From: Pedobacter arcticus A12
GTDB lineage: Bacteria; Bacteroidota; Bacteroidia; Sphingobacteriales; Sphingobacteriaceae
Length of the DNA: 64,000 nt
NCBI RefSeq assembly: GCF_000302595.1
Contig: NZ_JH947127.1
Span: 372,001 to 436,000, forward strand
Reading direction: 5' to 3'
The translations under genes and the position numbers were made by a program. The notes under the pieces are model-generated. The model saw nothing but the letters and a program-made list of their open reading frames with translations, ran no database searches and was not told the DNA's origin. Position 1 is the first letter of the stretch; the number at the start of each line of letters is the position of its first letter. Positions 42,193 to 59,353 of this stretch are shown in pieces.

Positions 42193-42753
42193 ATGGAGGA
42201 AATTTCTTGTGAAATAATTATAGAATTAAAAAAAGGCAATCAAGAGGCCTTTAAAAAAGTCTATAAATCCTATGCCAATCCCATTTTTAAAACAGCCAAG
42301 TATATTCTTAAAAACGATAGCTGGGCAGAAGAAATTGTACAGGAGACATTTTTGAAATTATGGTTAGCTAAAGATAACATCGATATTGACCAGCCTCTTT
42401 TAGCTTATATATATGTTATAGCTAAACGGTTATGCTTTAATAAACTGCGAAGTATAAAAACTGATAAAAAAGCAATAGAAGAATTAAGTTATCATATAGA
42501 AGTATATAGACTTGAAGACCAGTTTCAGTCCAGTGAAATTCAAAAATTACTAAAATCTGCGGTCGAAAAACTTACTACTCAACAAAAACTGGTTTGGAGA
42601 TTAAGTAGAGAAGAAGGTTTTACACACAAACAAATAGCTGAGCAATTAGGTATCTCGTTAAATACAGTAAAGAATCATCTTGTACAGGCATTGAAATTAT
42701 TACGAGCCGATTTTTGTAAAGCAGAATATATAACCATAAAAAACAAAGCATAA
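42193..42753 (+). CDS. ECF RNA polymerase sigma factor of the FecI-type
   Basis: A 186-residue sigma-70 family factor with region 2 (about 20-90, FKKVYKSYANPIFKTAKYIL, AEEIVQETFLKLWLAKDNI) and region 4 (about 125-180, LTTQQKLVWRLSREEGFTHK, QIAEQLGISLNTVKNHLVQA). It is followed by a FecR anti-sigma gene and then a SusC with an N-terminal signalling (STN) domain. In this arrangement substrate binding at SusC is passed via FecR to the sigma factor, which then transcribes the locus. The usual Bacteroidota sigma of this class has the same length. Confidence 0.93.
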   Translation: MEEISCEIIIELKKGNQEAFKKVYKSYANPIFKTAKYILKNDSWAEEIVQETFLKLWLAKDNIDIDQPLLAYIYVIAKRLCFNKLRSIKTDKKAIEELSYHIEVYRLEDQFQSSEIQKLLKSAVEKLTTQQKLVWRLSREEGFTHKQIAEQLGISLNTVKNHLVQALKLLRADFCKAEYITIKNKA

Positions 42754-42919
42754 AAAAAGGAAATAACTTTAATTACACAGCTACAGCTCCTCTTTTCCAG
42801 CAGTAACAATTCCGCTCCAATACAAGGAATCGCACATTTCTTTGATTCTGAAAAAAAATCTCACTTTTCTCTAGTCCTATTTACAGGTTTGCGTGTAATT
42901 AGAGTATATAGTTACAAAA
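42754..42919 (+). other. Spacer between sigma and anti-sigma genes
   Basis: A 166-bp non-coding gap, longer than usual for such pairs. No ORF or strong hairpin seen. It may hold the promoter recognised by the sigma factor itself, but I could not identify a defined element. Confidence 0.3.
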
Positions 42920-44107
42920 GTGGATAAAGAAGATTATAAAAAATTATTAGAAAAATATTTAAACAACGAGTTGGTTGAAGACGAGTTGTCTTATTTTTTG
43001 GAGCAAACAGCAACCAATGAAGAGTGGTTTTATGAAAATTTTGATCAAATTGATGAGACAAAATTAGGTGGAATTTTTGACGATGAAACCGGTTTCCAAA
43101 ATATATTGAGCCATACCGAATTTTCAAATGCAGCTAAAGAAAATACCAGATCGCTCATTCCTACAATTTTAAGGTACGCGGCTATATTTATTGTATTTGG
43201 GGCAGTTTCTTTAGTAGCCTATCAGTATTTCTCTAATGATCAAACGCAGAATTTTAAAGACTCAACTACCCTAATCACTAAAAGTAACATTACACTTTCA
43301 GAAAATAGTTCCTTAGAAATTAAACTTGCGGATGGAACGCATTTACAGTTAGATGAGGGAAACTTTAACAAAAGAATCAAAAAAGAGGGCATTACTATCG
43401 ACAAAGACAAAGATGGCTTAGTTGTTTTACAGCTAACTGCTCAGAAACACATTGGCAACCAGCCCGTGGGCTTTCATGAACTCTCTACACCAAGAGGAGA
43501 AGGTTTTACTTTTCAATTACCTGACGGTTCAAAAGTTTGGCTTAATACAACCACCAAAATAAAAATACCTGAAGATTTTAACCTCAAAAACCGAACGGTT
43601 TATTTAGAAGGGGAAGCTTTTTTTGATGTGGCCCATAATGCTTCAAAACCATTTTTAATTCACACAGATAATGATATTGTTAAAGTTTTAGGAACCGCTT
43701 TTAACGTTAAATCATACTCGCAAGATAAAACCAGCTTTGTCACACTTGTACGTGGATCTGTACAAGTAAACTCCGAAAACAAACAAATTTTACTTAGCCC
43801 GGGAGAGCAGTCTGTTTCTAATAAAAGTAGCGGCGACCTAGCCAAGAAAAAAGTAGATGTCGATCAGTTTATTGCATGGAAGAACGGTTATTTCAAATTT
43901 GTTGATCAACCTATTCATGAGATTATAAAAGAATTAATAAAATGGTACGACATTAAAGAGGTAAAATATGAGGTAGATAATAAAGAAAGATTTACAGCAA
44001 GTATCAAACGGTCACGCAACCTCAGTGATGTATTGAGCAATATAGAGAAGATTTCGAATTTACAATTTACTATAAAAGAAGGGAGGCTAATTGTAAAAGA
44101 AAAATAA
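42920..44107 (+). CDS. FecR family anti-sigma factor
   Basis: A 395-residue inner-membrane anti-sigma factor starting at GTG. An N-terminal cytoplasmic segment binds the sigma factor (YKKLLEKYLNNELVEDELSY). One membrane helix lies at about 77-97 (ILRYAAIFIVFGAVSLVAYQ). The periplasmic FecR domain spans about 185-280 (GEGFTFQLPDGSKVWLNTTT, YLEGEAFFDVAHNASKPFLI, VKVLGTAFNVKSY), and a C-terminal secretin/DUF4974-like domain (about 325-393, FKFVDQPIHEIIKELIKWYD, FTIKEGRLIVKEK) touches the STN domain of the receptor. It precedes the STN-bearing SusC by 89 bp, matching the expected signalling partner. Confidence 0.93.
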   Translation: MDKEDYKKLLEKYLNNELVEDELSYFLEQTATNEEWFYENFDQIDETKLGGIFDDETGFQNILSHTEFSNAAKENTRSLIPTILRYAAIFIVFGAVSLVAYQYFSNDQTQNFKDSTTLITKSNITLSENSSLEIKLADGTHLQLDEGNFNKRIKKEGITIDKDKDGLVVLQLTAQKHIGNQPVGFHELSTPRGEGFTFQLPDGSKVWLNTTTKIKIPEDFNLKNRTVYLEGEAFFDVAHNASKPFLIHTDNDIVKVLGTAFNVKSYSQDKTSFVTLVRGSVQVNSENKQILLSPGEQSVSNKSSGDLAKKKVDVDQFIAWKNGYFKFVDQPIHEIIKELIKWYDIKEVKYEVDNKERFTASIKRSRNLSDVLSNIEKISNLQFTIKEGRLIVKEK

Positions 44108-44196
44108 CCAAAACAAAAAGCGAAGGTGCTCTAACACCCCCGCTAAACAAATTTGATTAAGCAATCCAATTATAGCAATCAACCAAATTTATTCAA

Positions 44197-47100
44197 ATGT
44201 ATAAAAATTTATGTAGTTATCCATTAGGCAATTACGCCCTAATCGTCAGAAAAGCTCTGCTCATTATGAAACTAATTACCTGCTGTCTATTTGGCATTTT
44301 AATGCAAGTACACGCAACAGGTTTTGGTCAAAAAATAACACTCGAGGCAAAAAGTGCAAGCTTAAAGCAAGTTCTCAATCAAATTCAACTCCAAACAGAT
44401 TACGACTTTATTTATAATTCATCCTATATCCGCAATCTAAATGTGGATTATCACGTGAAGAACAAAGAGTTAAATCAAGTTCTTGAGGATATTCTGTCTC
44501 CAAAAGGTTTGGTGTTTTTTATTGATAACAACACTGTTTTAATCACTAAAAAATCGGAAGTAAATGCGAATAAAATGCAGGTACAACCAATTTCTGGAGT
44601 AGTAAATGATGATCAAAACAGTCCTATCCCAGGCGCTGTTGTTAAAATCGCAAACTCTAATGTGGGAACCCTTACTGATATAAACGGCAACTTTAAACTG
44701 CTAAGTCCAAGCAATGAAGGTGTACTGATTATATCTATGTTGGGCTACCAAACTATGGAAGTACCCTACAAAGTAGGCGAAGGTGTGTCGATAATTTTAA
44801 AAGAAGAAAAAAAATTATTAAACGAGATTGTTGTAGTAGGTTACGGAAGCCAGAAGCGGGCCAACCTAACTGGTGCTGTTGCGCAGATTAACACCGCCGA
44901 CATAGCGCTTCGTCCAGATGCAAACATTGCAACTGCCCTGCAAGGTTTGTTACCCGGATTAAATATTCAGGTAAACAACGGAGATCCAACAGCAACACCA
45001 GAACTAAATGTTAGAGGGTTTAACTCCATCAATGGTGGAAGTCCATTGGTATTAATTGATGGGATAGAAGGCAATATTGCCAGAGTTAACCCGAATGATA
45101 TTGAGAGTGTAACGGTTTTAAAAGATGCCGCTTCTTCAGCAATTTATGGAGCAAGAGGTTCTTTTGGCGTTATTTTGATAACCACTAAACAAGGTAAAGC
45201 TGGTAAAATGTCGGTAGATTATACAAATAACTTCGCCTGGACACAACCAACCACCAGAACAGATTTCTTATCTGATCCTTACGTTTTTGCGAAAACCGTT
45301 GATGCCGCACTTTACGGCTATAATGGCACAAATTATACTGGCTATAATGATTTAGATTATGAAGCCTTAAAAATGGTGGCAAACGGGGAAATCCCTCCTT
45401 TTAATGAGCTACAGAATAATGGTACGTATAAGTTTTTTGGTAATACCAATTGGTACGATTACATGTTTAAAAAGTTCCAAGCCTCAAACTTCCATAACAT
45501 TGCTATTTCTGGCGGAACAGATAAACTTAGAGGCTATTTATCAGGGCGTGTATACGACCGTGAAACGATTAATAATATACCTAAAGACTCTAATATGGAC
45601 AGGTATAATCTTAAATCTAACTTGGTATTCAATCCAAATCCATGGTTAGAACTGAGTAACAACATCCAGTTTATTAACGAGAAAGACAAAGAATACGGAG
45701 GTTATAGAAGTGGCTACGGAGGTTTATGGAGTACCACAACATGGTATAATTTATTTCCTTTTTACCCAAATTTCGTAAACGGTATACCAACAGACGTAGG
45801 CGTAGGAGGAAGTGGCGGACAAGGCGGAAGCGCTGCAATGGAGGCTGGAAACAATTGGAGATTATTTGGAACAGAGGAGTTTACCAATACATTTAGAGTA
45901 AAAGTTACCCCAATTAAAAACCTTGTTTTAAACTTGGATTATAGTAATCGTTTTGAAAACACATCAACAACTTACAGAACCAACGAATTTGAGTTTTTAT
46001 CCAATAGTAAGTTAGATTATATTACTTCGGGTGTTAACCAATTGGGTGAATATCGCTGGAAAGACAAGTACAACGCACTAAATATATTTGGAACTTATAG
46101 TGTGAACGTAAATAAAGATCATCATGTAAAATTGCTTTTAGGTTATAACCAGGAAGAATTTGATAGAGATCGGATTTTTGCGGAATCAAATGGTTTATTA
46201 ATCAGAGACCTATCCAACTTAGCATTAGGAACATCCTACAGTAGCATCAACGGATCTGCTACTAACTGGGCAGTACAAGGCTTTTTTGGCAGATTTAACT
46301 ACGATTATAAAAATAAATATCTGTTAGAAATCAATTCACGCTATGACGGGTCTTCGAGATTTCCAGAAAACAGTCGCTGGGGATTTTTTCCTTCAGTTTC
46401 AACAGGTTGGCAGGTTGACAGAGAAGATTTTTGGGCACCGATGCAAAAGTATGTGTCTGCCCTTAAAATCAGAGGCTCTTACGGGCAGTTAGGTAACCAA
46501 ACTGTTGGTGTAAATACTTTTAAACAACTGATGAAAGTTGGCCAATCTACTTGGCTTGATAATGGAATGCCCGTTATTTATGCAGGCGCACCCAATCCAT
46601 TACCAAAAGTAGTAACCTGGGAAACAACAAAAAGTTTAGATCTTGGTGTAGATATCGGTTTCTTAGCTAATAAGCTCTTTGTTAATTTTGATCTGTATAA
46701 AAAGATTACAGATGGCATGTATTTGCCAGGAAAACCCCTACCAGCTGTATTTGGTGCTGCAGAGCCTAGGGAGAATTATGCTTCTTTAGAGAACAAAGGT
46801 TTTGAACTTGGACTTAGTTACAGCGATAAATTTAACGTAGCGGGTTCGCCCCTAAATTTCAGTGTTTCGGCCAACGTTTCAAACTTTATCGGTACAATCA
46901 CCAAATATGACAATCCTAACGGCTTAATGAGTACGTATTGGGAAGGCCAGCGTTTAGGTCAAATGTGGGGATATAAAGTTGACGGACAGTTCCAATCTGA
47001 TGCCGACGCTTTAGCTTATCAAAACTCGTTCACTAAACCTTCCAATTCTTTAGGAAATGTATACAATTACATTTTAAACGTAGTGCAAAACAGTGAATGG

Positions 47101-47766
47101 AATCATTTAAAAGCGGGCGACATCAAATATCTTGACACAGATGGTGACGGACGAATCGACAAAGGAGATTACACACTTGCAGACCATGGCGACTTAGTGC
47201 CAATTGGAAATGCCATGCCTCAGTTTCCTTTCGGTGCAAACTTAAATGCAAACTGGAAAATTTTTGATTTCTCAGTTGCAGTTGCGGGCGTTGGTAAACA
47301 AGATTGGTACCCCACTGGTGACATTTATTGGGGTCCGTTCCAAAGACCATATTTATCATTTATAAGAAAAGATTTAATTGATAATGCTTGGACTCCAAAC
47401 AATACCCAAAACACTTATCCACAAATCTACAGAGGGTATGCTTCCTTAAACGGCGGTAGGTCTTTGTATGAAATGAATGATTATTACATGGAAAGTGTGG
47501 CTTATTTAAGGGTTAAAAATCTTAGTCTTGGAATTACCGTTCCCCAAAAATTCACCAAAAAATTTAACATCGAAAAAATGAGGCTGTTCTTTAGTGGCGA
47601 AAACATTCTTACGTGGAGTTTTGGTGGCCTAACCAAGTATATTGATCCAGAGCAGGCTGGTTCTGCGGTAAGTTACTCTAACCCAGCAAATGCTGTTGGC
47701 AGAGCGGATCTTCGCGATTATCCAATGGGTAAAACTTATTCTTTTGGACTCAATATCAATTTATAA
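44197..47766 (+). CDS. SusC/RagA-type TonB-dependent transporter with STN signalling domain
   Basis: An 1189-residue outer-membrane importer. Signal/leader (about 1-45); STN domain at about 50-120 (LEAKSASLKQVLNQIQLQTD, NQVLEDILSPKGLVFFI); carboxypeptidase-regulatory domain at about 130-205 (ISGVVNDDQNSPIPGAVVKI); plug with the SusC signature (LNEIVVVGYGSQKRANLTGA, LNVRGFNSINGGSPLVLIDG, IESVTVLKDAASSAIYGARG); long barrel ending YPMGKTYSFGLNINL. The STN domain links transport to FecR/sigma signalling. It is followed 18 bp later by a SusD lipoprotein, its usual lid and substrate-binding partner. Substrate to be inferred from the enzymes that follow. Confidence 0.95.
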   Translation: MYKNLCSYPLGNYALIVRKALLIMKLITCCLFGILMQVHATGFGQKITLEAKSASLKQVLNQIQLQTDYDFIYNSSYIRNLNVDYHVKNKELNQVLEDILSPKGLVFFIDNNTVLITKKSEVNANKMQVQPISGVVNDDQNSPIPGAVVKIANSNVGTLTDINGNFKLLSPSNEGVLIISMLGYQTMEVPYKVGEGVSIILKEEKKLLNEIVVVGYGSQKRANLTGAVAQINTADIALRPDANIATALQGLLPGLNIQVNNGDPTATPELNVRGFNSINGGSPLVLIDGIEGNIARVNPNDIESVTVLKDAASSAIYGARGSFGVILITTKQGKAGKMSVDYTNNFAWTQPTTRTDFLSDPYVFAKTVDAALYGYNGTNYTGYNDLDYEALKMVANGEIPPFNELQNNGTYKFFGNTNWYDYMFKKFQASNFHNIAISGGTDKLRGYLSGRVYDRETINNIPKDSNMDRYNLKSNLVFNPNPWLELSNNIQFINEKDKEYGGYRSGYGGLWSTTTWYNLFPFYPNFVNGIPTDVGVGGSGGQGGSAAMEAGNNWRLFGTEEFTNTFRVKVTPIKNLVLNLDYSNRFENTSTTYRTNEFEFLSNSKLDYITSGVNQLGEYRWKDKYNALNIFGTYSVNVNKDHHVKLLLGYNQEEFDRDRIFAESNGLLIRDLSNLALGTSYSSINGSATNWAVQGFFGRFNYDYKNKYLLEINSRYDGSSRFPENSRWGFFPSVSTGWQVDREDFWAPMQKYVSALKIRGSYGQLGNQTVGVNTFKQLMKVGQSTWLDNGMPVIYAGAPNPLPKVVTWETTKSLDLGVDIGFLANKLFVNFDLYKKITDGMYLPGKPLPAVFGAAEPRENYASLENKGFELGLSYSDKFNVAGSPLNFSVSANVSNFIGTITKYDNPNGLMSTYWEGQRLGQMWGYKVDGQFQSDADALAYQNSFTKPSNSLGNVYNYILNVVQNSEWNHLKAGDIKYLDTDGDGRIDKGDYTLADHGDLVPIGNAMPQFPFGANLNANWKIFDFSVAVAGVGKQDWYPTGDIYWGPFQRPYLSFIRKDLIDNAWTPNNTQNTYPQIYRGYASLNGGRSLYEMNDYYMESVAYLRVKNLSLGITVPQKFTKKFNIEKMRLFFSGENILTWSFGGLTKYIDPEQAGSAVSYSNPANAVGRADLRDYPMGKTYSFGLNINL

Positions 47767-47784: not shown

Positions 47785-49551
47785 ATGAAACGATATAAAT
47801 TATTGCTTGCCGTTGCAGTAAGCATTAGCACCATACTTACTTCTTGTAATAAGGATTTTTTAGATCGACCTGCTGAAGATCAGGTAGAAGCTGAGTTTTT
47901 CTTTAATACACCAAAGGATTTAGAAGTAGCTACAAATGACTTTTATACCATGCTTGCAACAACAACAGTTTATTCTGATGATGCTGCATCTGACAACATT
48001 GTTCCACTAATTGCTGCTGACCGCGTTAGAGGCAACAGAATTGTACCGACCGCTAGCGGGAGCGGTGGATGGTCTTGGGCTCGATTACGTAGTATAAATT
48101 ATTTTTTAGCTAATTATACCAAAGTAAAAGATGAACAAGCAAGGGCTAAATATAGTGGGATTGCTAAATTCTTTAGAGCTTATTTCTATTATACCAAAGT
48201 AAAAACTTTTGGCGATGTTCCTTGGTACAACAAAGTTTTAACTGCCAATGACCCCGACTTGTACAAAGCAAGAGATTCCAGAATTTTAGTTATGGACTCC
48301 GTTATGGCTGATATAGATTACGCAATAGCAAACATCCCTGCAGATAAGCAGCTCTCTAAAATCACAAAGTACACGGCTTTACTATTAAAAGCAAGAATCG
48401 CTCTTTTTGAAGGCACTTTTAGAAAATACCACGGCATAACTGGCTATCAGCATTTTTTAGAGGAAGCAGCAGCAGCTTCGGAAACTTTGATGAACACTGG
48501 GGCATATACGCTTTTCAAAACAGGTGGTAAAGATAATGCCTATAGGGATTTGTTTGCCCGTAACAATCAAGACGATGTAGAGACGATTCTATCAGCAGAT
48601 TTTGAACCCGCTATACAACAGCACAATTTAGGTTACCTGATGACCTCTCCTACCGCAGGAGCCTGGGGCATTACTAAAGATGTAATCAACAGCTACTTAA
48701 TGACGGACGGAACGCCTTTCACCAATCAAGCAAATTTTAAAACTAAGGGCTATTATGAGGAGTTTCAAAACCGTGACCCTAGGCTAGTACAAACAACAGC
48801 TGGTCCGTCGTTTAGAGTTAAAGGAGCAACAGCTAATGAGCCCGTTACCTTAAATTTAACCACAACGGGTTATAGAGTAATCAAAGCATTACCTACCCGC
48901 GACCAATGGGGAACTGCTGGTTATTTTGATCTTATCCTATTTAGATACGCAGAAGCATTACTGATTTTTGCAGAAGCAAAGGCAGAACTAAATACCCTTA
49001 CCCAAGCAGATTTGAACAAATCGATCAATCTTTTAAGAGCAAGAGTAGAAATGCCTGCGCTAAATCTGGTAACAGCCAACGCAAATCCAGATGCTTATCA
49101 GGAAGCGATGTATGTAAATGTAGAACAGGGAACAAACAAAGGTGTGATATTAGAAATCAGAAGAGAGCGAAGAATAGAAATGTTTAATGAAGGACTTAGA
49201 TGGGATGATTTGATGCGTTGGAAAGCGGGTGCAAAAGTTACGCAGCCTATGGTAGGAATTTATTTCTCAGGTGTTGGAGCATTTGATTTTACAGGAAATG
49301 GAAACGCCGACGTTTTTGTAAGTACAGGTAGTACATCTGGTGCACCTGCGTCTGTAACCTCATTCATCAATATTCAACAAAGAACGCTACGTAATCCACT
49401 TAACGGCTTGCCTAACAGTTCAGCCGGAAACCTGGATCCGTTTTCTCAAGGCGGTGCCTTTGATGAGTTGAAAGACTACTTAGCCCCTCTTCCTTTAGAA
49501 GACTTAAAACTAAATCCAAAGCTGGAACAAAACCCTAAATGGGATAAATAA
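47785..49551 (+). CDS. SusD/RagB-type surface lipoprotein
   Basis: A 588-residue substrate-binding lipoprotein. Lipobox STILTSC with the lipidated Cys at position 21. The N-terminal SusD-like segment FLDRPAEDQVEAEFFFNTPK is followed by the TPR-rich core (KYSGIAKFFRAYFYYTKVKT, TKYTALLLKARIALFEG) and the conserved C-terminal block RRERRIEMFNEGLRWDDLMRWK. It sits over the SusC barrel and captures oligomers at the cell surface. Of usual length for the longer SusD proteins. Partner of the preceding SusC. Confidence 0.95.
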   Translation: MKRYKLLLAVAVSISTILTSCNKDFLDRPAEDQVEAEFFFNTPKDLEVATNDFYTMLATTTVYSDDAASDNIVPLIAADRVRGNRIVPTASGSGGWSWARLRSINYFLANYTKVKDEQARAKYSGIAKFFRAYFYYTKVKTFGDVPWYNKVLTANDPDLYKARDSRILVMDSVMADIDYAIANIPADKQLSKITKYTALLLKARIALFEGTFRKYHGITGYQHFLEEAAAASETLMNTGAYTLFKTGGKDNAYRDLFARNNQDDVETILSADFEPAIQQHNLGYLMTSPTAGAWGITKDVINSYLMTDGTPFTNQANFKTKGYYEEFQNRDPRLVQTTAGPSFRVKGATANEPVTLNLTTTGYRVIKALPTRDQWGTAGYFDLILFRYAEALLIFAEAKAELNTLTQADLNKSINLLRARVEMPALNLVTANANPDAYQEAMYVNVEQGTNKGVILEIRRERRIEMFNEGLRWDDLMRWKAGAKVTQPMVGIYFSGVGAFDFTGNGNADVFVSTGSTSGAPASVTSFINIQQRTLRNPLNGLPNSSAGNLDPFSQGGAFDELKDYLAPLPLEDLKLNPKLEQNPKWDK

Positions 49552-49579: not shown

Positions 49580-51277
49580 ATGGAAAGTCGCAATGTATTA
49601 AAGTTTTTCACACTCATGCTATTAGCAACCATTTTCTTTGGATGCAAGAAATCTGATGAGCAATTTGAAAAAAAATTATTGGTAAATACCGATTATATAG
49701 AAGTAGCTAGCAAAAGTAATTCTTACTCGTTTGAAATATTATCAAACCAAGATATTTCCCTAGCAACCGATGTAGACTGGATTGTATTTGACACCGCTGC
49801 TTTAGCAAAAGGAAAACATACTATCCGTTTTACTGCACAAAAGAACGAAGATGAAGAGCGAAGCGGTACCATATCGGTCAAAATTAGCGACGAGTTAACC
49901 AAAGATATCTTAGTGATTCAGGAAGCTGGATTAGTCAACATCTTTTATGTTAAAAATGGCGCTACAGGTAACGGACGTTCCTGGGATCAGGCAACTGATT
50001 TAGTTACGGCAATAACCAATTCAACCAGCGGTAGTATCATTCATATTGCAGCAGGAACTTACATCCCTTCAAAAACCATAACCAACGGAGAATCTGCAAA
50101 CGCGGGAGACAAAACATTTGAGATTAACAAAAACATTAGTCTTATTGGTGGTTATCCTGCAAATGCAACTGACGGAACTGTTGCTAACCCACAACTGTAC
50201 AAAACTATTTTCTCTGGAAAACAGGCTGATGGATCAGAATCATTCCATGTAGTTACTATTTCGGCACCCATTGCAACCGGCGAAAAAGTAAGTATTGAAG
50301 GCATTATCGTAAAAGAAGGAAATGCTACGGATAGAGGAATAAACATCACCCTTAATGGAAATCAATTTAGCCGAGGAATGGGCGGCGGAATGCTAATTGG
50401 TGGATCAACAGTATTATTAAAAGATGTAGATATTATAGAAAACGTTGCAAGTGCAAAATCAGGCATTGCCGGGCTTTGTGCAGGCTTATATGTGTTTGGT
50501 AATGCAAATTTAGAAATGCAAAGCTGTAAAGTAAATAACAACAGCAACACGGCAAACAATGGAGGTGGTTTATGGGTTTACGGATCTAAAGCATATATCT
50601 ACAACTCACAAGTCAATAATAATTACGCAAAAGGTACTGCTGGCGGTGTTCACTCCTACCCTAATGCAGAAGTTTACATGTATAACTCTGAGGTTAAAGG
50701 CAACAATAATACCTCATTTGGAGCTGGTGTGTATGCTCGTGAAAACTCTAAAATATTTCTAATAAATTGTTTGATTACAAACAACGTTACAACGTCTGCA
50801 AATGGTGGCGCTGGAGTAATGCTGTATGATAATTGTGTGGCAAATATCATCAGCAGTACAATTAGCAAAAATATCACTCCAGGCCCAGGCGGTGGTATAT
50901 TCCGCAGACAGAATAGTAATTCACTTACATTAATCAACAGTATTGTTTCAGGAAATTCTCAGGCCGGTAGCAGTACAGACGTAGATAGTTATGTAGTTGC
51001 TGCAGGTCCATTAGTGACAACAAGCTCTGTTTTGGGAAGTAAAGCTTATAATAGTTCAGGTTCAGAGCTTACAACTACTTTTAACCCAAGCACCATGTTT
51101 GATACGAGTTACAGACCTATCGGAAATAACAATCCAGCCTTACAATCTGGTTTAAATGCTTCTCAGCTCGACTTAATTTCTCAAAGTTATAACCCAGTAT
51201 TAAGTGGGGAAATTCTTAAAGATATCAATGGCGTATCAAGAGAAGGAAAAACCATTATGGGCGCATTAGCAAACTAA
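49580..51277 (+). CDS. BACON-domain/right-handed beta-helix surface lipoprotein
   Basis: A 565-residue lipoprotein (lipobox ATIFFGC, Cys22). A BACON-like beta-sandwich at about 32-117 (YIEVASKSNSYSFEILSNQD, GTISVKISDELTKDILVIQE) is the domain type that often tethers or binds glycans in Sus-like systems. A right-handed parallel beta-helix follows from about 125 (FYVKNGATGNGRSWDQATDL is the usual entry strand; repeated NNNSNTANNGGGLWV, NNYAKGTAGGVHSY and NNNTSFGAGVYARE coils; the end VLSGEILKDINGVSREGKTI). This resembles choice-of-anchor-Q-type proteins. Without recognisable catalytic residues, I prefer a glycan-binding role, though some such helices are lyases. Confidence 0.8.
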   Translation: MESRNVLKFFTLMLLATIFFGCKKSDEQFEKKLLVNTDYIEVASKSNSYSFEILSNQDISLATDVDWIVFDTAALAKGKHTIRFTAQKNEDEERSGTISVKISDELTKDILVIQEAGLVNIFYVKNGATGNGRSWDQATDLVTAITNSTSGSIIHIAAGTYIPSKTITNGESANAGDKTFEINKNISLIGGYPANATDGTVANPQLYKTIFSGKQADGSESFHVVTISAPIATGEKVSIEGIIVKEGNATDRGINITLNGNQFSRGMGGGMLIGGSTVLLKDVDIIENVASAKSGIAGLCAGLYVFGNANLEMQSCKVNNNSNTANNGGGLWVYGSKAYIYNSQVNNNYAKGTAGGVHSYPNAEVYMYNSEVKGNNNTSFGAGVYARENSKIFLINCLITNNVTTSANGGAGVMLYDNCVANIISSTISKNITPGPGGGIFRRQNSNSLTLINSIVSGNSQAGSSTDVDSYVVAAGPLVTTSSVLGSKAYNSSGSELTTTFNPSTMFDTSYRPIGNNNPALQSGLNASQLDLISQSYNPVLSGEILKDINGVSREGKTIMGALAN

Positions 51278-51284: not shown

Positions 51285-52442
51285 ATGAGCAAATTTGTTT
51301 TAACTCTTAGCATCCATTTGTTTTTAGGATTAGCTGGCTATAGCCAGCTAAAACCTAAAAACGTAATGTTGATATTAGGTTCAGATCAAAAACCAATCCT
51401 AACCAACCGTGTAAAAGTTGCTTTAAAGCTTTACCACGCACAACATATCGATAAAATTATTGTTTCTGGAGGTTGCGCCGCACATGCGTCTGCTATTTGT
51501 GAGGCTAGCGAAATGCAACAACAATTAACAGATGGTGGTGTACCAAAAAAAATCATCTATAAAGAAGAAAATTCGAAAACCACTGCGCAGAACTATGTTT
51601 ACAGCAGAGTTTTAAAAGATGAGTTTGGCGAGAAAATCATTCAGAAAAATGATAGCTTGATTGTTGTGTCTGACCATTGGCATGCCATTTCAGTGGCTGC
51701 GAGGTTTAACCAATACGACGGTGTAAAAGCAAAGTTTTTTATAGAAGGGGATTTAACTCCAAAACCCGCAGATTTATTGGATTATGTAGGTATTTACAAT
51801 AAAGTGCGTGACAATAATGAGTTTATCCTAAGAAGTACCTGGCCTACACCCGATGCGGTTTACAATATTAAAGGGAGCACCAATTATATTTTCGCAAACA
51901 GAGTTTATACGGTAACAACTGGAAAGCCTGAGTCGGCCAAGATAGATTCATTATCAAAGCTTTTTCCAAGATTAACGGTTAACGGAGATCAAAGTATCGA
52001 TGCCATTGCCAGGGATTCGAAAAACGGATGTTTGTTGATTTTCAATAACCTCAACTGTCAGACCCAGTTTGATAATCTTAAAAAGAAGTCGATAAACACA
52101 CCCTTAAATAAGCTGGTGAGCAATTTACCTGCAGACGTTAAATGGATAGATGCTGCATTTATCAAAGAAAATCGACTGTATCTATTTACAAAAAACAAAC
52201 TGATTATAGCTTCCAGATCAGGCAGTGGTTTTAAAGTGGTAAATATTGATGATGTGAAGAACTGGATAAGCAACTGGCCATATTCATGGGGTAAAGGAGA
52301 TTTAACAGCTGCAGATTATGATGAACAAACAAAAACTATCTATCTGTATAAAAACCGTGAATCCCTAACGATCAACAATCAACAAAAATCAGAAAACAAG
52401 CCAGAAAAGCTAGTGCTTAAATGGCAGGATTTTAAAAACTAA
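51285..52442 (+). CDS. Exported YdcF (DUF218) domain joined to a hemopexin-like four-repeat domain
   Basis: A 385-residue protein with a signal peptide (ends near GYSQ, residue 21). Residues 22-175 form a YdcF/SanA/ElyC-type domain: NVMLILGSDQ, DKIIVSGGCAAHA, the EENSKTTAQNYVYS motif and VVSDHWHAISVAARF. Residues 188-365 hold four spaced repeats, PDAVYNIKGSTNYIFANRVY (189-208), IDAIARDSKNGCLLIFNN (238-255), IDAAFIKENRLYLFTKNKLI (288-307) and LTAADYDEQTKTIYLYKNRE (340-359). Each starts with D/T-A and is followed by a linker with a W/F-P turn (KLFPRLTVNGD, WISNWPYSWGKGD), as in hemopexin blades. YdcF proteins have unsettled functions, often tied to envelope glycan metabolism. The fusion is unusual; the hemopexin call is inference from the repeats. 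Confidence 0.72.
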   Translation: MSKFVLTLSIHLFLGLAGYSQLKPKNVMLILGSDQKPILTNRVKVALKLYHAQHIDKIIVSGGCAAHASAICEASEMQQQLTDGGVPKKIIYKEENSKTTAQNYVYSRVLKDEFGEKIIQKNDSLIVVSDHWHAISVAARFNQYDGVKAKFFIEGDLTPKPADLLDYVGIYNKVRDNNEFILRSTWPTPDAVYNIKGSTNYIFANRVYTVTTGKPESAKIDSLSKLFPRLTVNGDQSIDAIARDSKNGCLLIFNNLNCQTQFDNLKKKSINTPLNKLVSNLPADVKWIDAAFIKENRLYLFTKNKLIIASRSGSGFKVVNIDDVKNWISNWPYSWGKGDLTAADYDEQTKTIYLYKNRESLTINNQQKSENKPEKLVLKWQDFKN

Positions 52443-52447: not shown

Positions 52448-53338
52448 ATGAAAAAAATATTTTTTATATTATTTATTTCTACACTACATATTTTAACAGG
52501 ATGTGCAAAATATGAAGACGGAACCCAACTTCCGTACGTTGTAGGAACCGTTGATGCAGACAAAGACTTAAAGGATTTAATCGACAACACTCCTTGGGTT
52601 AGTAAAAACATTAGTGACGGTATCGTTTGGAAATATTATCAATTTCCAAACATTTTCGATTCTCGCCAATACATCAACGTTTTCGACATCGATTTAAGCA
52701 AAAATTTAAAATTTGAAATCCCCTACACAAGTACCGCAGATCTTTTTACGGCTAGTCAAGCTGGAGAAAGAAACAACGCTGACATTGCAATAAATGGAAG
52801 TTATTTCGGAAATAACTATGGTGGTTCCACAGTTTATTTTAGACACGATGGAACAGTAATTACGCAAACTGTAGCAAATTTTGATTCGTTTAGAGAAAAT
52901 GCGGCTTTCACGCTAAGTGCTTCAGGCAAACCTTCCATTGTAAAAAAACCTTCGGGCGGTTGGGACCAAGTAAATGCATCCTACGTTTTAGCTGGTGGTC
53001 CGCTATTAGTTTATGAAGGGAAGCCCATTGGCCAATTAAACGCTGTTTTTAATACAACCCGCCACCCACGAACTGTATTGGGAACAACCGACGATAATCA
53101 TTTACTAATGGTAGTAATAGATGGAAGATCCTCACAATCACAAGGGTTAACAACTGTTCAATTAACAGAATTAATGATGGCATTAGGCTGTATATATGCT
53201 GTTAACATGGACGGGGGCGGTTCCTCAACAGCTTGGACTAAAGATGATGGAGTTGTTAACCACCCCACCGATAACGGAAAATTTGACCATGATGGACAAA
53301 GACCTTTAGGTACAGCAATTACTGTAACCAAGCAATAA
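52448..53338 (+). CDS. Phosphodiester glycosidase (NAGPA) family lipoprotein
   Basis: A 296-residue lipoprotein (lipobox HILTGC, Cys19) of the NAGPA family, named for the mammalian uncovering enzyme that removes GlcNAc from GlcNAc-1-P-mannose by hydrolysing a sugar-phosphodiester bond. Family residues are present: ADIAINGSYFGNNYGG (about 112-126), TRHPRTVLGTTDDNHLLMVV (204-223), DGRSSQSQGLTTVQLTELM, AVNMDGGGSSTAW (251-263) and the end GQRPLGTAITVT. It lies 5 bp after the YdcF-hemopexin gene in the SusCD operon. Probably displayed in the periplasm or at the surface. It may expose sugars from phosphodiester-linked glycans. Confidence 0.88.
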   Translation: MKKIFFILFISTLHILTGCAKYEDGTQLPYVVGTVDADKDLKDLIDNTPWVSKNISDGIVWKYYQFPNIFDSRQYINVFDIDLSKNLKFEIPYTSTADLFTASQAGERNNADIAINGSYFGNNYGGSTVYFRHDGTVITQTVANFDSFRENAAFTLSASGKPSIVKKPSGGWDQVNASYVLAGGPLLVYEGKPIGQLNAVFNTTRHPRTVLGTTDDNHLLMVVIDGRSSQSQGLTTVQLTELMMALGCIYAVNMDGGGSSTAWTKDDGVVNHPTDNGKFDHDGQRPLGTAITVTKQ

Positions 53339-53517
53339 AACTCAAAACTTTAGGATTTAGGTTGTTTACTACATGCCGATATGTTGGTAATCTGGTAAAC
53401 AACCGAAACCTGATTGATGTATTGAAACATTATGCATCAAGCCACTATGTGCTGTCTTTTAGATTAAGCATCGGGTAATTGCGTGAGATAATTTCAAATA
53501 TTATTCAAATAAACAAG

Positions 53518-53591: not shown

Positions 53592-55199
53592 ATGAAAAAA
53601 ATTTACAGTGTATTATTTGTGCTCATTATGATATGCGCAAGCAACATTACAAAGGCTCAAATTTATTATGTTTCAACTTACGGAGGAACTAGCGCCGGAA
53701 ACCCAACAGATGATGTTATCGCTAGTGTGAAATTTAGAAGTCCGGAGCGACTAACTTATGATAATGACAGCAATATGATTGTGGTAGATCGGGGAAACCA
53801 CGTTATTCGGAAAATAACCCCTGCGGGCTTAGTAACTACCATAGCAGGTAGCGGAACAGCAGGATATAAAGACGACAATGGGACCAGCGCTCAATTTTCT
53901 AATCCTTGGGGAGCTGTTGTGGATGCTACTGGAAACATTTATGTTGCTGACCGCGATAATTTCAGAATTCGTAAAATAGCACCAAATGGAGACGTAACTA
54001 CACTTGCTGGTTCGGCGGCTGTTACAGGGGTGGATAACGACAACCCTCTATTGGCAAGTTTTAAACAACCTTTAGATGTAATTTTTGACAACAACGGCAA
54101 CCTACTTGTTGCAGATGGAGTTGGACACAAGATCCGCAAGATAGCAACAGACGGAAAGGTAACTACACTTGCAGGAACTGGCGTTACAGGTTTTAAAGAT
54201 GACAGTAATCCTCTACTTGCTCAATTCGCTTCACCATCTGGTTTGGGTATTGATAAAGATGGAAACATCCTTGTAGCAGACAGAATCAACAATAGGATCA
54301 GAAAAATAAATTCAACAAATAATGTATCTACCATCGTAGGTTCTGGTACAAAAGGAACAGTAGATAATAATTCACCGTTGTTAGCACAACTATCTGAGCC
54401 CTATTATGTAGATGTAGATGCTGATGGAAATATGTATGTCGTAGAATTAGCACATACCATCCGGAAAATAGCAAGTGATGGAAAAGTAAGTGTTATTGCA
54501 GGAATCGGAGGTACTTTAGGTTTCTTAGATGGTAAAGGTAGCGACGCCAAGTTCTATAATCCAGCCGGATTATGTATCGCTAAAGACGGTACAATTTACG
54601 TTGCAGATGTAAGCAACAACAAAATCAGAAAGCTATCCACAATAAATCCGTTACCTGTAAAGCTGGTTTCATTTCAAGGTAAATTAGACAAAGCAAATGG
54701 CATCACACTATCTTGGTCTACCGCTTCAGAACAAAACAATGCTTATTTCGAATTGCAAAAATCTAACGACGGTATTAACTGGTCTTTACTTCAAACCATC
54801 ACAGGTAAAGGAAACAGTGATCAATTACTTATTTATAGCTACGCAGATGTTTCTCCTTTTAACGGAAACAATTATTACCTGCTTAAACAAGTAGACTTTA
54901 ACGGGAAAAGCAGTTTAACGGCACCCATCAACGTAAACTTTAATTTATCCCAAGTCAATAAACTAAGCGCTTATTATAATAATGGTGCACTAGCAATAAC
55001 TGCTCAAGGGTTTACTAACGGAAATGGGCAAATTGTTGTTCGTAACCTAAACGGCCAAGTTATAACTTCACAAGACGTGAACCTAGTAAACGGCGTCAAT
55101 GAATTTGCTGTACCTGTAAATTTGCAAAGTGGCTTATATGTTTTATCACTGCTTTCTACGTCAGGTAATCAGTCGTTGAAATTTGTTGCTAAAAATTAA
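53592..55199 (+). CDS. Secreted NHL-repeat beta-propeller protein with T9SS-type tail
   Basis: A 535-residue secreted protein. The signal peptide ends near TKAQ (about 22). Five to six NHL blades span about 28-350, with the repeating pattern P..(V/L)..D..GN(I/L)(Y/L)VAD...(N/H).IRKI (ATGNIYVADRDNFRIRKIA, NGNLLVADGVGHKIRKIA, DGNILVADRINNRIRKIN, DGTIYVADVSNNKIRKLS). Next is a beta-sandwich linker typical of T9SS cargo (LPVKLVSFQGKLDKANGITL, WSTASEQNNAYFELQKSNDG) and a C-terminal sorting-like domain (GQIVVRNLNGQVI, LQSGLYVLSLLSTSGNQSLK). NHL propellers bind ligands or, in some cases, catalyse. Here a surface binding or enzymatic role in the glycan locus is inferred. It has its own upstream region with a palindrome. 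Confidence 0.85.
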   Translation: MKKIYSVLFVLIMICASNITKAQIYYVSTYGGTSAGNPTDDVIASVKFRSPERLTYDNDSNMIVVDRGNHVIRKITPAGLVTTIAGSGTAGYKDDNGTSAQFSNPWGAVVDATGNIYVADRDNFRIRKIAPNGDVTTLAGSAAVTGVDNDNPLLASFKQPLDVIFDNNGNLLVADGVGHKIRKIATDGKVTTLAGTGVTGFKDDSNPLLAQFASPSGLGIDKDGNILVADRINNRIRKINSTNNVSTIVGSGTKGTVDNNSPLLAQLSEPYYVDVDADGNMYVVELAHTIRKIASDGKVSVIAGIGGTLGFLDGKGSDAKFYNPAGLCIAKDGTIYVADVSNNKIRKLSTINPLPVKLVSFQGKLDKANGITLSWSTASEQNNAYFELQKSNDGINWSLLQTITGKGNSDQLLIYSYADVSPFNGNNYYLLKQVDFNGKSSLTAPINVNFNLSQVNKLSAYYNNGALAITAQGFTNGNGQIVVRNLNGQVITSQDVNLVNGVNEFAVPVNLQSGLYVLSLLSTSGNQSLKFVAKN

Positions 55200-55290
55200 T
55201 GACGGCGTAAAAAAATAATTGCTTTTAAAATAGCTCAAAATGTATCTGTGTTATTTATCGATACTTTAAAATTCATATATTTTTTCAAAA

Positions 55291-55322
55291 ACACCCTGAA
55301 ACGACCAATCGGATCAGGGTGT
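55291..55322 (+). promoter_or_regulatory. Hairpin in the leader of the second NAGPA gene
   Basis: A perfect 9-bp stem (ACACCCTGA at 55291-55299 with TCAGGGTGT at 55314-55322, 14-nt loop) ending 18 bp before the ATG at 55341. No T-tract follows, so it is more likely a leader RNA structure or protein site than a terminator. Confidence 0.45.
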
Positions 55323-55340
55323 ATAAACTCTAAATTAGTT

Positions 55341-57335
55341 ATGAAAAAAAAATATTTATTAAGTATAGCCATGTGTTTCATATGCTTATATTCCTATGCT
55401 CAATACACTTTAGTTTCAACTAAACGGATATCGCCAGGAGCAGTTTACAAACAATATACATCAACAAGTCCAGCGCTAAAAATATCGCTGATGGAAATCT
55501 CACTATCAGAACCTACCATAAAATTACAGGTTGTTAAATCTGCTGGAGTAATTAATGGCGATACCCAAACGGTCTCAACCATGTACTCAACACATGATAA
55601 TATTAAATACCACGATGTTGTGGCCGGAATTAACGGAGATTTTTTTACCAGTACTTCTACCTATCAAAATCCCAGACACATGTTGATAGGCGATGGCGAA
55701 ATATTATGGGATACCGTAAGAAACCAATCTGTGTTTGGTATAACCGAAGGAAATATTCCATTCATTGAAAAACTTACCGAAAACTACAGTGTAAAAGCAG
55801 GAGTGTCCACGTTTCCTTTTAATCAGATCAATCGAAATCGAGGTTTAAACCAAATGGTAATGTATAACCGGTTTTATGGAAACACAACTAAAACCTCAGC
55901 TGGGGGTACAGAAATAAAAATTATTCCAGTTGCAGGTAAAGAAGGTTGGAAAGCCAATGCTATAGTCTCATGTAAAGTATTAGCAAAGTCAAGTGCGGGG
56001 AACATGAGTTTTCTAGACGGAGAAGCTGTTTTATCTGGCCTTGGTGTAGCAAAGAGTTTCTTAGATAATTTAAATGTTAATGATATAATTTCTTTAGATC
56101 TAAACGTTTTATCAGCTTCTAAAGGTATCAGCGATATCAAACAATTAACAGGCGGTTATCCTAAAATTGTTTCCAATGGAACTAATTACGCAACAGCCGG
56201 AATGGCTGATGAAGGCAGCCCTGCGGGCACTGTGGCAGCACCACGTACTGCAATTGGCTACAATCAGGCTAAAAACAAAATTTATTGGGCAGTTATAGAT
56301 GGGCGGGCGCCAGGAGTAAGTGAAGGAGTAACCTTAAGTGAATTGGCAGACTTTATGATTTTTGCGGGTTGTTACCAATCTCTGAATTTAGATGGTGGAG
56401 GATCTTCCTCAATGGTAGCGAATGGAGAAGTAAAAAATAATCCTTCTGATGGTTCAGAAAGACTCATTTCTAACTCCATATTAGCCTACTTAACTACTTT
56501 AACTTTAGATGATTTTGAAGACGGTGTTGGGCACTTTAATAGAGCACCTACATATGACCCCGCTACCGTTGGAGTTTCAACCAGTTCAGTTGCGGTACCA
56601 GCACTCACTGCTCATAGTGGAAACAACTCCTTAATTGTTAAATTATATGATGATCCCACAACAACTGCATCTTGGTATGTAAGATTACTTTCTGGAAGCG
56701 GAAATCCCGCATATAATAGATATTTCAGCGGACAAGGAACTATAAGTTTCTGGTTAAAAACATCTACTGCAGGCACCAATCCTAAAGTAAGAATAAGATT
56801 AGATGATAACGATGGCACAGAAGTTTCCCCAATTTTAAATATCATTAACGATGGCGACTGGCATAAATATACTTGGAGTTTATCCAATTTTAATGGTTCT
56901 TCAACAGATGGAGGAAATGGTATACTCAACAGTACGGGAGCCCGACTAGATGCCATTGAATTTACACAGAATAACACTTCAAACACATGGTTTATCTTTT
57001 TAGATGATATTATGGTCGATAAAAACAGTGTTCAATCCACACAAATTCAGACTATAAAAAACCAACCTCTTACACTTGAAAAGTCTGCTATCTTACCTTC
57101 AAGTATAAGTATTTACCCAAACCCCGCAAAAGATAATATTACAATAGCCCTAAATGACTCCAACATTAAGAAATTTGAGGTCGAAATATTTAATATGATG
57201 GGAGAGTCAGTTTTAAAAGATACCTATATAGGAAGTAAAACAACAATAGCTACCAATAAATTGAACGAAGGAGTATATGTTTTACACCTTAAGTCCAAAA
57301 ATACTACTCAAACTTTTAAATTATTAATTCAATAA
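55341..57335 (+). CDS. Phosphodiester glycosidase (NAGPA) with carbohydrate-binding-like and T9SS sorting domains
   Basis: A 664-residue secreted enzyme. Signal peptide MKKKYLLSIAMCFICLYSYA. The NAGPA catalytic domain spans about 75-390 with VVAGINGDFFTSTSTYQNPR, AAPRTAIGYNQAKNKIYWAV, IDGRAPGVSEGVTLSELADF and NLDGGGSSSMVANGE. A galactose-binding/CBM-like beta-sandwich lies at about 395-570 (LTLDDFEDGVGHFNRAP, GTISFWLKTS, DDGDWHKYTWSL-like INDGDWHKYTWSLSNF). A T9SS type A sorting domain closes it (SISIYPNPAKDNITIAL, NEGVYVLHLKSKNTTQTFKL). The frame is open to an ATG at 55248, but the signal peptide fixes the start at 55341. It is a second NAGPA in the locus, exported to the surface by T9SS, while the first is a lipoprotein. 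Confidence 0.88.
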   Translation: MKKKYLLSIAMCFICLYSYAQYTLVSTKRISPGAVYKQYTSTSPALKISLMEISLSEPTIKLQVVKSAGVINGDTQTVSTMYSTHDNIKYHDVVAGINGDFFTSTSTYQNPRHMLIGDGEILWDTVRNQSVFGITEGNIPFIEKLTENYSVKAGVSTFPFNQINRNRGLNQMVMYNRFYGNTTKTSAGGTEIKIIPVAGKEGWKANAIVSCKVLAKSSAGNMSFLDGEAVLSGLGVAKSFLDNLNVNDIISLDLNVLSASKGISDIKQLTGGYPKIVSNGTNYATAGMADEGSPAGTVAAPRTAIGYNQAKNKIYWAVIDGRAPGVSEGVTLSELADFMIFAGCYQSLNLDGGGSSSMVANGEVKNNPSDGSERLISNSILAYLTTLTLDDFEDGVGHFNRAPTYDPATVGVSTSSVAVPALTAHSGNNSLIVKLYDDPTTTASWYVRLLSGSGNPAYNRYFSGQGTISFWLKTSTAGTNPKVRIRLDDNDGTEVSPILNIINDGDWHKYTWSLSNFNGSSTDGGNGILNSTGARLDAIEFTQNNTSNTWFIFLDDIMVDKNSVQSTQIQTIKNQPLTLEKSAILPSSISIYPNPAKDNITIALNDSNIKKFEVEIFNMMGESVLKDTYIGSKTTIATNKLNEGVYVLHLKSKNTTQTFKLLIQ

Positions 57336-57373: not shown

Positions 57374-57394
57374 ATTCACTTAAATTATCAAAAA

Positions 57395-58267: not shown

Positions 58268-58288
58268 CCCATAAAACCCAAACTAATC

Positions 58289-59353
58289 ATGAATAAGTAT
58301 TGTATTCTTTTATTTGTCTTATTAACGAGTAGCCAAATTTTTGCCCAAGATGGTTTTAAATACACAGATGGTCATCTTTTAAATTTAAGGGGTAGTTCTT
58401 TCGCTTCCGAGGATGACTACAACAGACTTGATTCGGTGCAAAGGTTACCATTGCCGGCTAGGGTGCAAGAATTAGCACAAAACTCTTCCGGTTTAACTAT
58501 TAATTTCGAAACCAATGCAAAGTCTATCCGGGTAAAATGGGAATTAGAAAAACTCCTAACGATATGGAATATGACTCCTGTAGCTATCAACGGTTTAGAT
58601 TTGTATGCGTTTGAGAACAACAAATGGCAATACGTTGCATCTGCCCGTCCTACTGGCGAAAAAAATCGTGTTTTAATGGTTGATCAATTAGATGGCAGAT
58701 CGCGTAAATATCGGCTACACCTTCCTTTGTATTCCAAATTAAACAAATTGGAAGTAGGTGTCCCAGATTCTTCTACTATTAAAGCATGGACACAATCTTT
58801 TACAGACAAAAGAAAGGTGGTTATTTATGGGTCTAGCATCACACAAGGTGCTTCTGCCTCGCGTCCGGGGATGGCGTATCCATCTATTATTTCCAGAAAA
58901 ATGGGCCTTGAAGTTATTAACCTCGGTTTTAGTGGCAGTGGTAAAATGGAGTTTGACATGGCAAAAACACTGGCAAAAATACCCGCAGCTGTTTATGTTT
59001 TAGATTGCGTACCAAATCCAAGTCCACAACAAATTAAAGAAAGATCGTATGTTTTTATCAAATACTTACGTATTCAAAAGCCTCAAACTCCCATTATAAT
59101 GATAGAAAGTGTTTATAGGGAAACCGCTTATTGGAACAGCAAAACTAAAAGTATGGTTGAGCAGCAAAACCAAGAGTTTAGAAATACTTTTGACAAGCTC
59201 CATGCAGAAAACCCTAAGGGCATCTATTACATCAAATCTGCTAAACTAATGGGCACAGATCACGAAGCTACCGTTGACGGCACTCATTTAACAGACTTAG
59301 GCTTTATGCGGATTTCGGAGACTGTAATGAAATACCTAAAAAAAGCTTTATAG
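58289..59353 (+). CDS. Secreted SGNH/GDSL esterase with N-terminal GxDLY domain
   Basis: A 354-residue secreted hydrolase. Signal peptide MNKYCILLFVLLTSSQIFAQ. An N-terminal beta-sandwich at about 25-165 contains NGLDLYAFENNKW, the GxDLY motif that names this esterase-associated domain. The SGNH domain from about 170 has VVIYGSSITQGASASRPGM (block I Ser), VINLGFSGSGKMEFDMAK (Gly), YVLDCVPNPSPQQI (Asn) and EATVDGTHLTDLGFMRI (block V Asp/His). Such enzymes remove acyl groups from glycans. Last gene of the locus, 21 bp after the EEP gene, followed by an inverted repeat. Confidence 0.92.
   Translation: MNKYCILLFVLLTSSQIFAQDGFKYTDGHLLNLRGSSFASEDDYNRLDSVQRLPLPARVQELAQNSSGLTINFETNAKSIRVKWELEKLLTIWNMTPVAINGLDLYAFENNKWQYVASARPTGEKNRVLMVDQLDGRSRKYRLHLPLYSKLNKLEVGVPDSSTIKAWTQSFTDKRKVVIYGSSITQGASASRPGMAYPSIISRKMGLEVINLGFSGSGKMEFDMAKTLAKIPAAVYVLDCVPNPSPQQIKERSYVFIKYLRIQKPQTPIIMIESVYRETAYWNSKTKSMVEQQNQEFRNTFDKLHAENPKGIYYIKSAKLMGTDHEATVDGTHLTDLGFMRISETVMKYLKKAL

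What the first reader, a model, noticed from the sequence alone, without database searches (positions are those of the whole stretch)
42193..59353. A SusCD locus apparently built for phosphodiester-linked glycans
Seen: ECF sigma, FecR, STN-SusC, SusD, BACON/beta-helix lipoprotein, YdcF-type protein, two NAGPA-family proteins, an NHL propeller, an EEP phosphodiesterase and a GxDLY-SGNH esterase, with no recognisable glycoside hydrolase or polysaccharide lyase. Known: NAGPA cleaves sugar-phosphodiester bonds and EEP enzymes cleave phosphodiesters. Inference: the locus imports and takes apart a glycan or glycolipid whose units are joined or capped by phosphodiesters (phosphomannan, teichoic-type polymer, phosphoglycan or inositol-phosphate glycolipid). 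I know of no described locus with this gene set.
Basis: partly seen in the sequence, partly recalled or inferred. Interest (0 to 1): 0.8.

Follow-up and report, generated by a model that had tools for sequence, protein, structure and literature searches.

The report
SusCD island for phosphodiester-linked glycans
A bacterium of the Sphingobacterium family carries a block of genes that looks built to import and dismantle a sugar polymer held together by phosphate links, using relatives of the human lysosomal 'uncovering enzyme' instead of ordinary sugar-cutting enzymes; what the polymer is has not been tested.

Summary
Window 42193-59353 holds ECF sigma, FecR, STN-SusC, SusD, BACON/beta-helix lipoprotein, DUF218 protein, NAGPA lipoprotein, NHL protein, second NAGPA (T9SS tail), EEP and GxDLY-SGNH esterase; Pfam and NCBIfam find no GH or PL. 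The block lies between EamA and a TolB-propeller gene that are neighbours in 8 of 8 same-genus relatives fetched, so it is a discrete accessory unit. Its core (SusD-betahelix-NAGPA, usually with DUF218) recurs in 29 other distinct records, mostly Sphingobacterium. The tail is not random: EEP and SGNH are closest to those of two loci with sister SusDs, and SusCD-NAGPA-NHL-EEP recurs in two genomes. Other NAGPA-SusCD loci carry alkaline phosphatase, PLD, PHP or calcineurin-type enzymes; several carry none. This favours a phosphodiester substrate. Closest described kind: Flavobacterium 'phosphate utilisation systems' (PMC8115612), so I call it a NAGPA-based variant. Substrate unproven; I favour Gram-positive wall glycopolymers anchored by GlcNAc-1-P-6-MurNAc. 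New detail: the 'YdcF' protein carries a hemopexin-like propeller.

The parts
42193..42753 (+). ECF sigma factor
   Evidence: Sigma70_r2 and Sigma70_r4_2
42920..44107 (+). FecR-type anti-sigma factor (GTG start as called)
   Evidence: FecR 2.1e-19, FecR_C 6.7e-13
44197..47766 (+). SusC-type TonB-dependent transporter with STN domain
   Evidence: TIGR04056 810 bits; STN 1.7e-6, 28.2 bits, just under its 28.4-bit cut-off
47785..49551 (+). SusD lipoprotein
   Evidence: SusD_RagB 6.1e-40
49580..51277 (+). BACON plus right-handed beta-helix lipoprotein; likely surface glycan-binding or depolymerising protein (inference)
51285..52442 (+). secreted DUF218 (YdcF/SanA-type) protein with C-terminal hemopexin-like four-bladed propeller (about residues 181-382)
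52448..53338 (+). NAGPA1, lipoprotein of the phosphodiester glycosidase family
   Evidence: PF09992 127.7 bits, cut-off 25; family profile matches uncovering enzyme 6pki E 6.3e-14 and 3ohg E 1.2e-19
53360..53404 (+). 10-bp perfect inverted repeat (loop 25) after NAGPA1, possible terminator or processing site
   Evidence: read from sequence; not among the consensus terminator hits
53592..55199 (+). NHL beta-propeller protein, possible T9SS substrate
   Evidence: NHL 9.6e-30; TIGR04183 22.9 bits, cut-off 23
55248..57335 (+). NAGPA2, T9SS-type phosphodiester glycosidase family protein
   Evidence: PF09992 109.4 bits; TIGR04183 54.5 bits
57368..58267 (+). secreted EEP-superfamily phosphodiesterase
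   Evidence: PF03372 1.9e-16; SYNV, LQEV, GDFN, RIDF, SDH stretches present (their catalytic role is recalled)
58289..59353 (+). secreted GxDLY-SGNH esterase
   Evidence: PF14607 3.4e-36, PF14606 1.9e-61; 4lhs E 5.1e-82
59372..59413 (+). 10-bp inverted repeat after the last gene, possible terminator closing the block
   Evidence: read from sequence; not among the consensus terminator hits

Best explanation
The block is an accessory, self-regulated SusCD uptake locus for a glycan or glycoconjugate whose sugars are joined, capped or anchored through phosphodiester bonds. Proposed working: ligand in SusC signals through its STN domain to FecR, which frees the ECF sigma (general knowledge of this architecture, inferred here). 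SusD, the BACON/beta-helix lipoprotein and the NHL and NAGPA2 proteins (T9SS-type tails) bind and cut the polymer outside; SusC imports fragments; at the membrane or in the periplasm NAGPA1 splits sugar-1-phosphate bonds, EEP splits remaining phosphodiesters and the SGNH esterase removes ester groups. Shown: gene content, block integrity, conserved core, family motifs, recurring phosphoesterase company. Inferred: activity, location and order of steps. Most likely substrate (about 0.3): a teichoic-acid-like or other Gram-positive wall glycopolymer, whose GlcNAc-1-P-6-MurNAc anchor is the bacterial look-alike of the GlcNAc-1-P-6-mannose cut by the human uncovering enzyme.
For: Block absent at the same site in 8 of 8 relatives fetched. 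Core in 29 distinct records; of 28 NAGPA1 matches of 350 bits or more in 301 family genomes I saw the context of 24, and 21 have it. The NAGPA1 family keeps the NGxY, RT, DGR/DGQ and DGGGS stretches shared with uncovering enzymes and 3ohg. EEP and SGNH are nearest to those of L193/L194 (EEP 61/55%, SGNH 47/54%), whose SusDs are sister to this clade. Other NAGPA-SusCD loci carry alkaline phosphatase (L088, L090, L092), PLDc_2 (L049), calcineurin-type enzyme (L040), PHP protein (L060, L064, L183) or EEP (L203, L208). Wall-polymer hint: L040 has NAGPA-NamZ-SusC-SusD beside NlpC/P60, an MR_MLE enzyme and beta-lactamase-fold genes; L208 adds GH20. GlcNAc-1-P on O6 of MurNAc anchors wall teichoic acid (passages of PMC8807736).
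Against: No activity, expression or substrate data. My EEP profile (one seed, weak) found no EEP in the 29 core records and PHP directly follows NAGPA in only 3, so NAGPA may need no local partner or may do something else. NAGPA-SusCD loci with no phosphoesterase that I recognised: L050, L074, L106, L172, L176, L205, L206. EEP of this type sits beside SusCD in 13 of 15 fetched regions, mostly without NAGPA, so it says little about NAGPA itself. In three genomes 8 of 146 SusD genes lie within 10 kb of an EEP (hand count). The loci were found by searching for NAGPA or EEP, so their joint presence is partly chosen by me. NAGPA-NamZ adjacency appears in only three genomes of one genus in the listed (capped) rows and NamZ is in 297 of 301 genomes. 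L173, L174 and L176 have a high-scoring NAGPA1 relative without the core order. The 253-bp gap may split regulation.
Confidence: 0.58

Rival explanations
1. It is a phosphate utilisation system: the locus serves phosphorus scavenging from many organic phosphodiesters (lipid headgroups, nucleic acid fragments, phosphosugars) and is induced by phosphate hunger rather than by a specific glycan.
For: PUS loci of Flavobacterium johnsoniae join SusCD, an ECF sigma or FecR, and periplasmic PDE or PME; lipoproteins with polygalacturonase homology are induced alongside (passages of PMC8115612). A Sphingobacteriaceae EEP locus, L210, reads SusC-SusD-Metallophos-EEP-Metallophos.
Against: The paper's main text does not contain the word NAGPA. 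The block's own STN-SusC/FecR/ECF set suggests ligand induction. I did not search for PHO-type promoter elements and could not measure expression.
Confidence: 0.22
2. An ordinary phosphate-free glycan locus: NAGPA-family proteins here act as plain alpha-glycosidases or binding proteins, the beta-helix protein is an unrecognised lyase or hydrolase, and EEP/SGNH only trim decorations.
Against: Phosphoesterases of five unrelated families beside NAGPA-SusCD in different lineages; the stretches shared with uncovering enzymes are kept.
Confidence: 0.15
3. Extracellular nucleic acid or nucleotide scavenging, with EEP as an exonuclease III-like nuclease.
For: EEP's nearest solved relatives by sequence are exodeoxyribonucleases (E 3.3e-6) and its best NCBIfam match is xth, far under cut-off (44.6 vs 99).
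Against: Explains neither NAGPA, SGNH nor the beta-helix protein; similarity to nucleases is weak and the EEP fold is shared by many phosphodiesterases (recalled).
Confidence: 0.05

Closest known systems
Phosphate utilisation systems (PUS) of Flavobacterium johnsoniae, PMC8115612
   Same: SusCD pair with linked ECF sigma or FecR and phosphodi- or monoesterases in place of CAZymes; lipoproteins with polygalacturonase homology induced alongside (passages seen).
   Different: The word NAGPA does not occur in its main text; DUF218-hemopexin and GxDLY-SGNH were not searched for there. PUS is defined by the phosphate-depletion response, untested here; PUSI is thought by its authors to target lipid headgroups and nucleic acids.
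Classical polysaccharide utilisation loci (Sus/PUL)
   Same: SusC, SusD, BACON lipoprotein, sigma/anti-sigma control.
   Different: No GH or PL family hit.
NAGPA / uncovering enzyme family (uncovering enzyme 6pki; Bacteroides DUF2233 protein 3ohg)
   Same: Family profile over cut-off and the shared stretches.
   Different: Here a lipoprotein and a T9SS-type protein tied to SusCD; activity unknown.
L193/L194-type Sphingobacteriaceae loci
   Same: Sister SusD, with EEP and SGNH closest to the window's; L193 also has NHL and a DUF218 protein.
   Different: No NAGPA and no beta-helix protein recognised.

Membership tests
SusCD uptake locus | adjacent SusC (TIGR04056) and SusD (PF07980) | tested here: met
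   810 bits over 368; 138 bits over 23.1; 18 bp apart
SusCD uptake locus | substrate-induced expression and import | not testable with these tools
   needs transcript and uptake data
CAZyme-type PUL | at least one recognised GH or PL in the locus | tested here: not met
   no GH/PL Pfam hit in the 11 genes; no such NCBIfam hit in the 9 of them scanned there. An unrecognised beta-helix enzyme is not excluded
Phosphate utilisation system (PUS) | SusCD co-located with PDE or PME genes | tested here: met
   EEP and two NAGPA in the block
Phosphate utilisation system (PUS) | induced by phosphate depletion only | not testable with these tools
   no expression data
NAGPA family (PF09992) | profile score over cut-off and conserved NGxYF/NGxFF, RT, DGR, DGGGS stretches | tested here: met
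   127.7 and 109.4 bits over 25; stretches in both proteins. NAGPA2 matches only profile positions 59-167
NAGPA family (PF09992) | hydrolysis of sugar-1-phosphodiesters | not testable with these tools
   needs purified protein
EEP superfamily phosphodiesterase | PF03372 over cut-off with catalytic stretches | tested here: met
   60.9 bits over 24.5; stretches found; catalytic roles recalled
T9SS substrate (NHL protein) | TIGR04183 sorting domain over cut-off | tested here: inconclusive
   22.9 vs 23
Endonuclease IV-type phosphodiesterase (extra gene in 21 of 29 core relatives, absent from window) | nine-ligand three-zinc site | tested here: inconclusive
   nine candidate ligand positions invariant in 15 of 15 rows, one D to E (ligand list recalled; L034 and L063 are one record); nearest PDB matches are MJ1311 and sugar epimerases

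The most novel reading that the evidence does not exclude
A SusCD feeding system for Gram-positive wall glycopolymers in which NAGPA cuts the GlcNAc-1-phosphate-6-MurNAc anchor, the same bond chemistry as the human lysosomal uncovering reaction. It would give the large bacterial NAGPA family a physiological role and define a class of loci that open phosphodiester-anchored polymers enzymatically.
Probability: 0.22. Interest if true: 0.78.

Novelty: new variant of a known kind. Interest (0 to 1): 0.56.

Why it matters
Bacterial NAGPA proteins are widespread (141 of 392 genomes of the window's phylum at E 1e-15), yet as far as I know their role is nearly unexplored. A conserved SusCD-NAGPA operon ties the family to import of a specific ligand and so makes substrate discovery practical: SusD, SusC and NAGPA proteins can be tested against a short list of phosphodiester glycans. 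It would extend phosphodiester-targeting SusCD systems beyond the Flavobacterium PUS loci.

Tried and rejected
Phosphomannan as first choice: no alpha-mannosidase family appeared among the neighbour proteins of NAGPA loci that I scanned with Pfam (selected proteins only); GH20, GH97, GH3, GH109, GHL10, NAGLU and, by my reading without a Pfam run, GH43 did. Not excluded.

Reading the beta-helix protein as a known lyase: fold matches share the helix only. W332 (nearly invariant) and the invariant H358, Y385, R387, Y416, R442 and D469 fall on equivalent strands of successive coils, which suggests a binding or active groove; this is inference. A PDB sequence search found nothing for this protein, nor for the DUF218 protein.

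Reading the extra TIM-barrel gene of relatives as endonuclease IV: left inconclusive.

Mobile-element origin of the block: no exact direct repeat of 10 bp or more between its two flanking gaps, GC 0.369 against 0.364 upstream, no tRNA in the window, no Rfam hit in 36000-64000. Bacteroidetes-type promoter pattern: 6 matches in the window against 6.4 expected. Consensus promoters 55 against 63, terminators 11 against 13.5.

Phosphoesterase rule: not every NAGPA-SusCD locus has one (see the Against line). The PHP protein scored in Pfam (L182, a repeat record of L070, where PHP follows a second SusCD and is not counted among the 3) is under the PHP cut-off, 24.3 vs 26.4, with DUF5001; L060's was placed by its PDB match 3e38, itself only a predicted phosphoesterase.

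Literature: in the listings I saw no title or abstract that describes a NAGPA-containing SusCD locus; the papers themselves were mostly not opened. One search returned diet and gut-microbiota papers and probably matched longer words that begin with 'nagpa' (my guess). The library lacks most subscription journals, so absence is weak.
Full report
1. What is there. Spacing from SusC to NAGPA1 is 5-28 bp and from NHL to SGNH 21-48 bp; 253 bp separate the two runs, and 166 and 89 bp separate sigma from FecR and FecR from SusC. Lipobox-like cysteines are visible in SusD (LTSC), the beta-helix protein (FFGC) and NAGPA1 (LTGC); DUF218, EEP and SGNH begin with signal-peptide-like stretches (read; no predictor was run). 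NAGPA2 has a T9SS sorting domain and the NHL protein a borderline one.

2. The block is a unit. In 8 of 8 same-genus relatives whose region I fetched (of 16 other genomes with an EamA hit), EamA is followed directly by the TolB-propeller gene that here lies at 60991; only the window has the 17 kb between them. GC content is like the surroundings and there are no flanking direct repeats, so the mode of arrival is unknown, and one insertion or two cannot be told apart.

3. The core is conserved. Named ones are Sphingobacterium, Desertivirga and Rhinopithecimicrobium. Some records are close relatives, so 29 is not a count of independent events. Of 28 matches of 350 bits or more in 301 family genomes I saw the context of 24, the window included: 21 have this arrangement and L173, L174 and L176 do not. 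L173 instead has EEP and a calcineurin-type phosphoesterase before NAGPA.

4. The tail is not random either. The window EEP searched in 151 family genomes hit 23, the window's own included, at E 1e-30. Of the 18 regions fetched, 15 hold EEP hits (16 of the 32 places other than the window's), one a NAGPA2-type hit and two NAGPA-SusD neighbours. SusC-SusD stands before EEP in 13 of the 15, with none to two genes between; L200 and L202 are the exceptions. L193 reads sigma-FecR-SusC-SusD-NHL-EEP-DUF218-SGNH and L194 SusC-SusD-EEP-SGNH. In a 67-sequence SusD tree these two SusDs are sister to the window's NAGPA clade (FastTree, midpoint root, no support values read; labels cover a 10.5-kb radius). 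The window's EEP and SGNH are closest to theirs. L203 and L208 (the latter of the window's genus) read sigma-FecR-SusC-SusD-NAGPA-NHL-EEP with distant SusDs. NAGPA2 is not conserved: 3 of 151 genomes match at E 1e-20, the window's own included.

5. Is the company telling? NAGPA beside SusCD is rare outside the family: of 59 NAGPA regions from 46 genomes of the phylum, picked by me from listed hits, 2 had SusD in about 20 kb and 5 a SusC-like gene. EEP beside SusD is a minority event: 8 of 146 SusD genes in three genomes lie within 10 kb of an EEP, one of them this locus; seen the other way, 9 of 26 EEP genes lie within 10 kb of a SusD (hand counts). Where NAGPA and SusCD do meet, phosphoesterases of unrelated folds recur: alkaline phosphatase in Bacteroides gallinarum and two Bacteroidales MAGs (L088, L090, L092), PLDc_2 in L049, calcineurin-type in L040, PHP in L060, L064 and L183, EEP in the window, L203 and L208. 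I recognised none in L050, L074, L106, L172, L176, L205 and L206, where not every neighbour was scanned. The loci were found through NAGPA or EEP, so this is a pattern and not a test.

6. Chemistry. The NAGPA1 family profile aligns with uncovering enzymes (6pki E 6.3e-14) and the Bacteroides DUF2233 protein 3ohg (1.2e-19) through the shared stretches. From memory, Das et al. 2013 (not held) found about 1% of the human activity on GlcNAc-P-mannose for the 3ohg protein. The wall-teichoic-acid anchor is GlcNAc-1-P on MurNAc (passages of PMC8807736), close to the uncovering enzyme's substrate. L040 looks like a murein-use locus (SH3-NlpC/P60, MR_MLE enzyme, beta-lactamase-fold proteins, NamZ exo-muramidase) with NAGPA directly before NamZ-SusC-SusD, and L206 has NAGPA-NamZ-SusC-SusD. 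That adjacency is confined to three genomes of one genus among the listed, capped rows. PMC12419801 reports NAGPA joined with a prok-TelC domain, sometimes with NlpC/p60, in Bacillota (passage). This is why I rank wall glycopolymers first, at about 0.3.

8. Against the literature. PUS loci of Flavobacterium are the closest described kind I found (passages). This locus shares SusCD, sigma/FecR control and phosphodiesterase company, and differs at least in NAGPA. Whether it answers to phosphate or to a glycan cannot be told from sequence. Verdict: real, well conserved, probably a phosphodiester-glycan system, and a variant of a known kind.

Noticed in passing
window 51285-52442: DUF218 domain fused to a hemopexin-like propeller in a SusCD locus; aligned full length with 17 relatives; the propeller was modelled on the window protein only.
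   Followed up: partly
L193:10434-11666 and L175:11408-12667: Other SusCD loci of this group carry a DUF218 domain towards the C-terminal end of a longer protein, so DUF218 recurs here in a second architecture.
   Followed up: no
L040 and L206: NAGPA-NamZ-SusC-SusD; in L040 inside what looks like a murein-use locus with NlpC/P60 and beta-lactamase-fold genes.
   Followed up: partly
L168:1295-3849: Two PHP-type proteins side by side directly before NAGPA in a genome of the family of Bacteroides gallinarum (the first scanned).
   Followed up: no
G033 C1 about 3.20 Mb and G102 C1 about 4.355 Mb: Pairs of EEP genes next to a SusD.
   Followed up: no
window 59354-60990: 1.6 kb AT-rich stretch (GC 0.294) without ORFs of 120 aa or more between the block and the TolB-propeller gene.
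   Followed up: partly
L052 (own genome C3 about 329.8 kb): Third NAGPA gene of the genome (541-aa frame), outside the window; no SusC or SusD recognised in its 20-kb region.
   Followed up: no
L059, L062: Protein that looks like an FAD-dependent oxidoreductase (by reading, no Pfam run) after NAGPA1 in the Candidatus Sphingobacterium stercorigallinarum MAG.
   Followed up: no
L171:6220-11534: GxDLY-SGNH-like gene next to a NAGPA gene without SusCD nearby, in genome G705.
   Followed up: no
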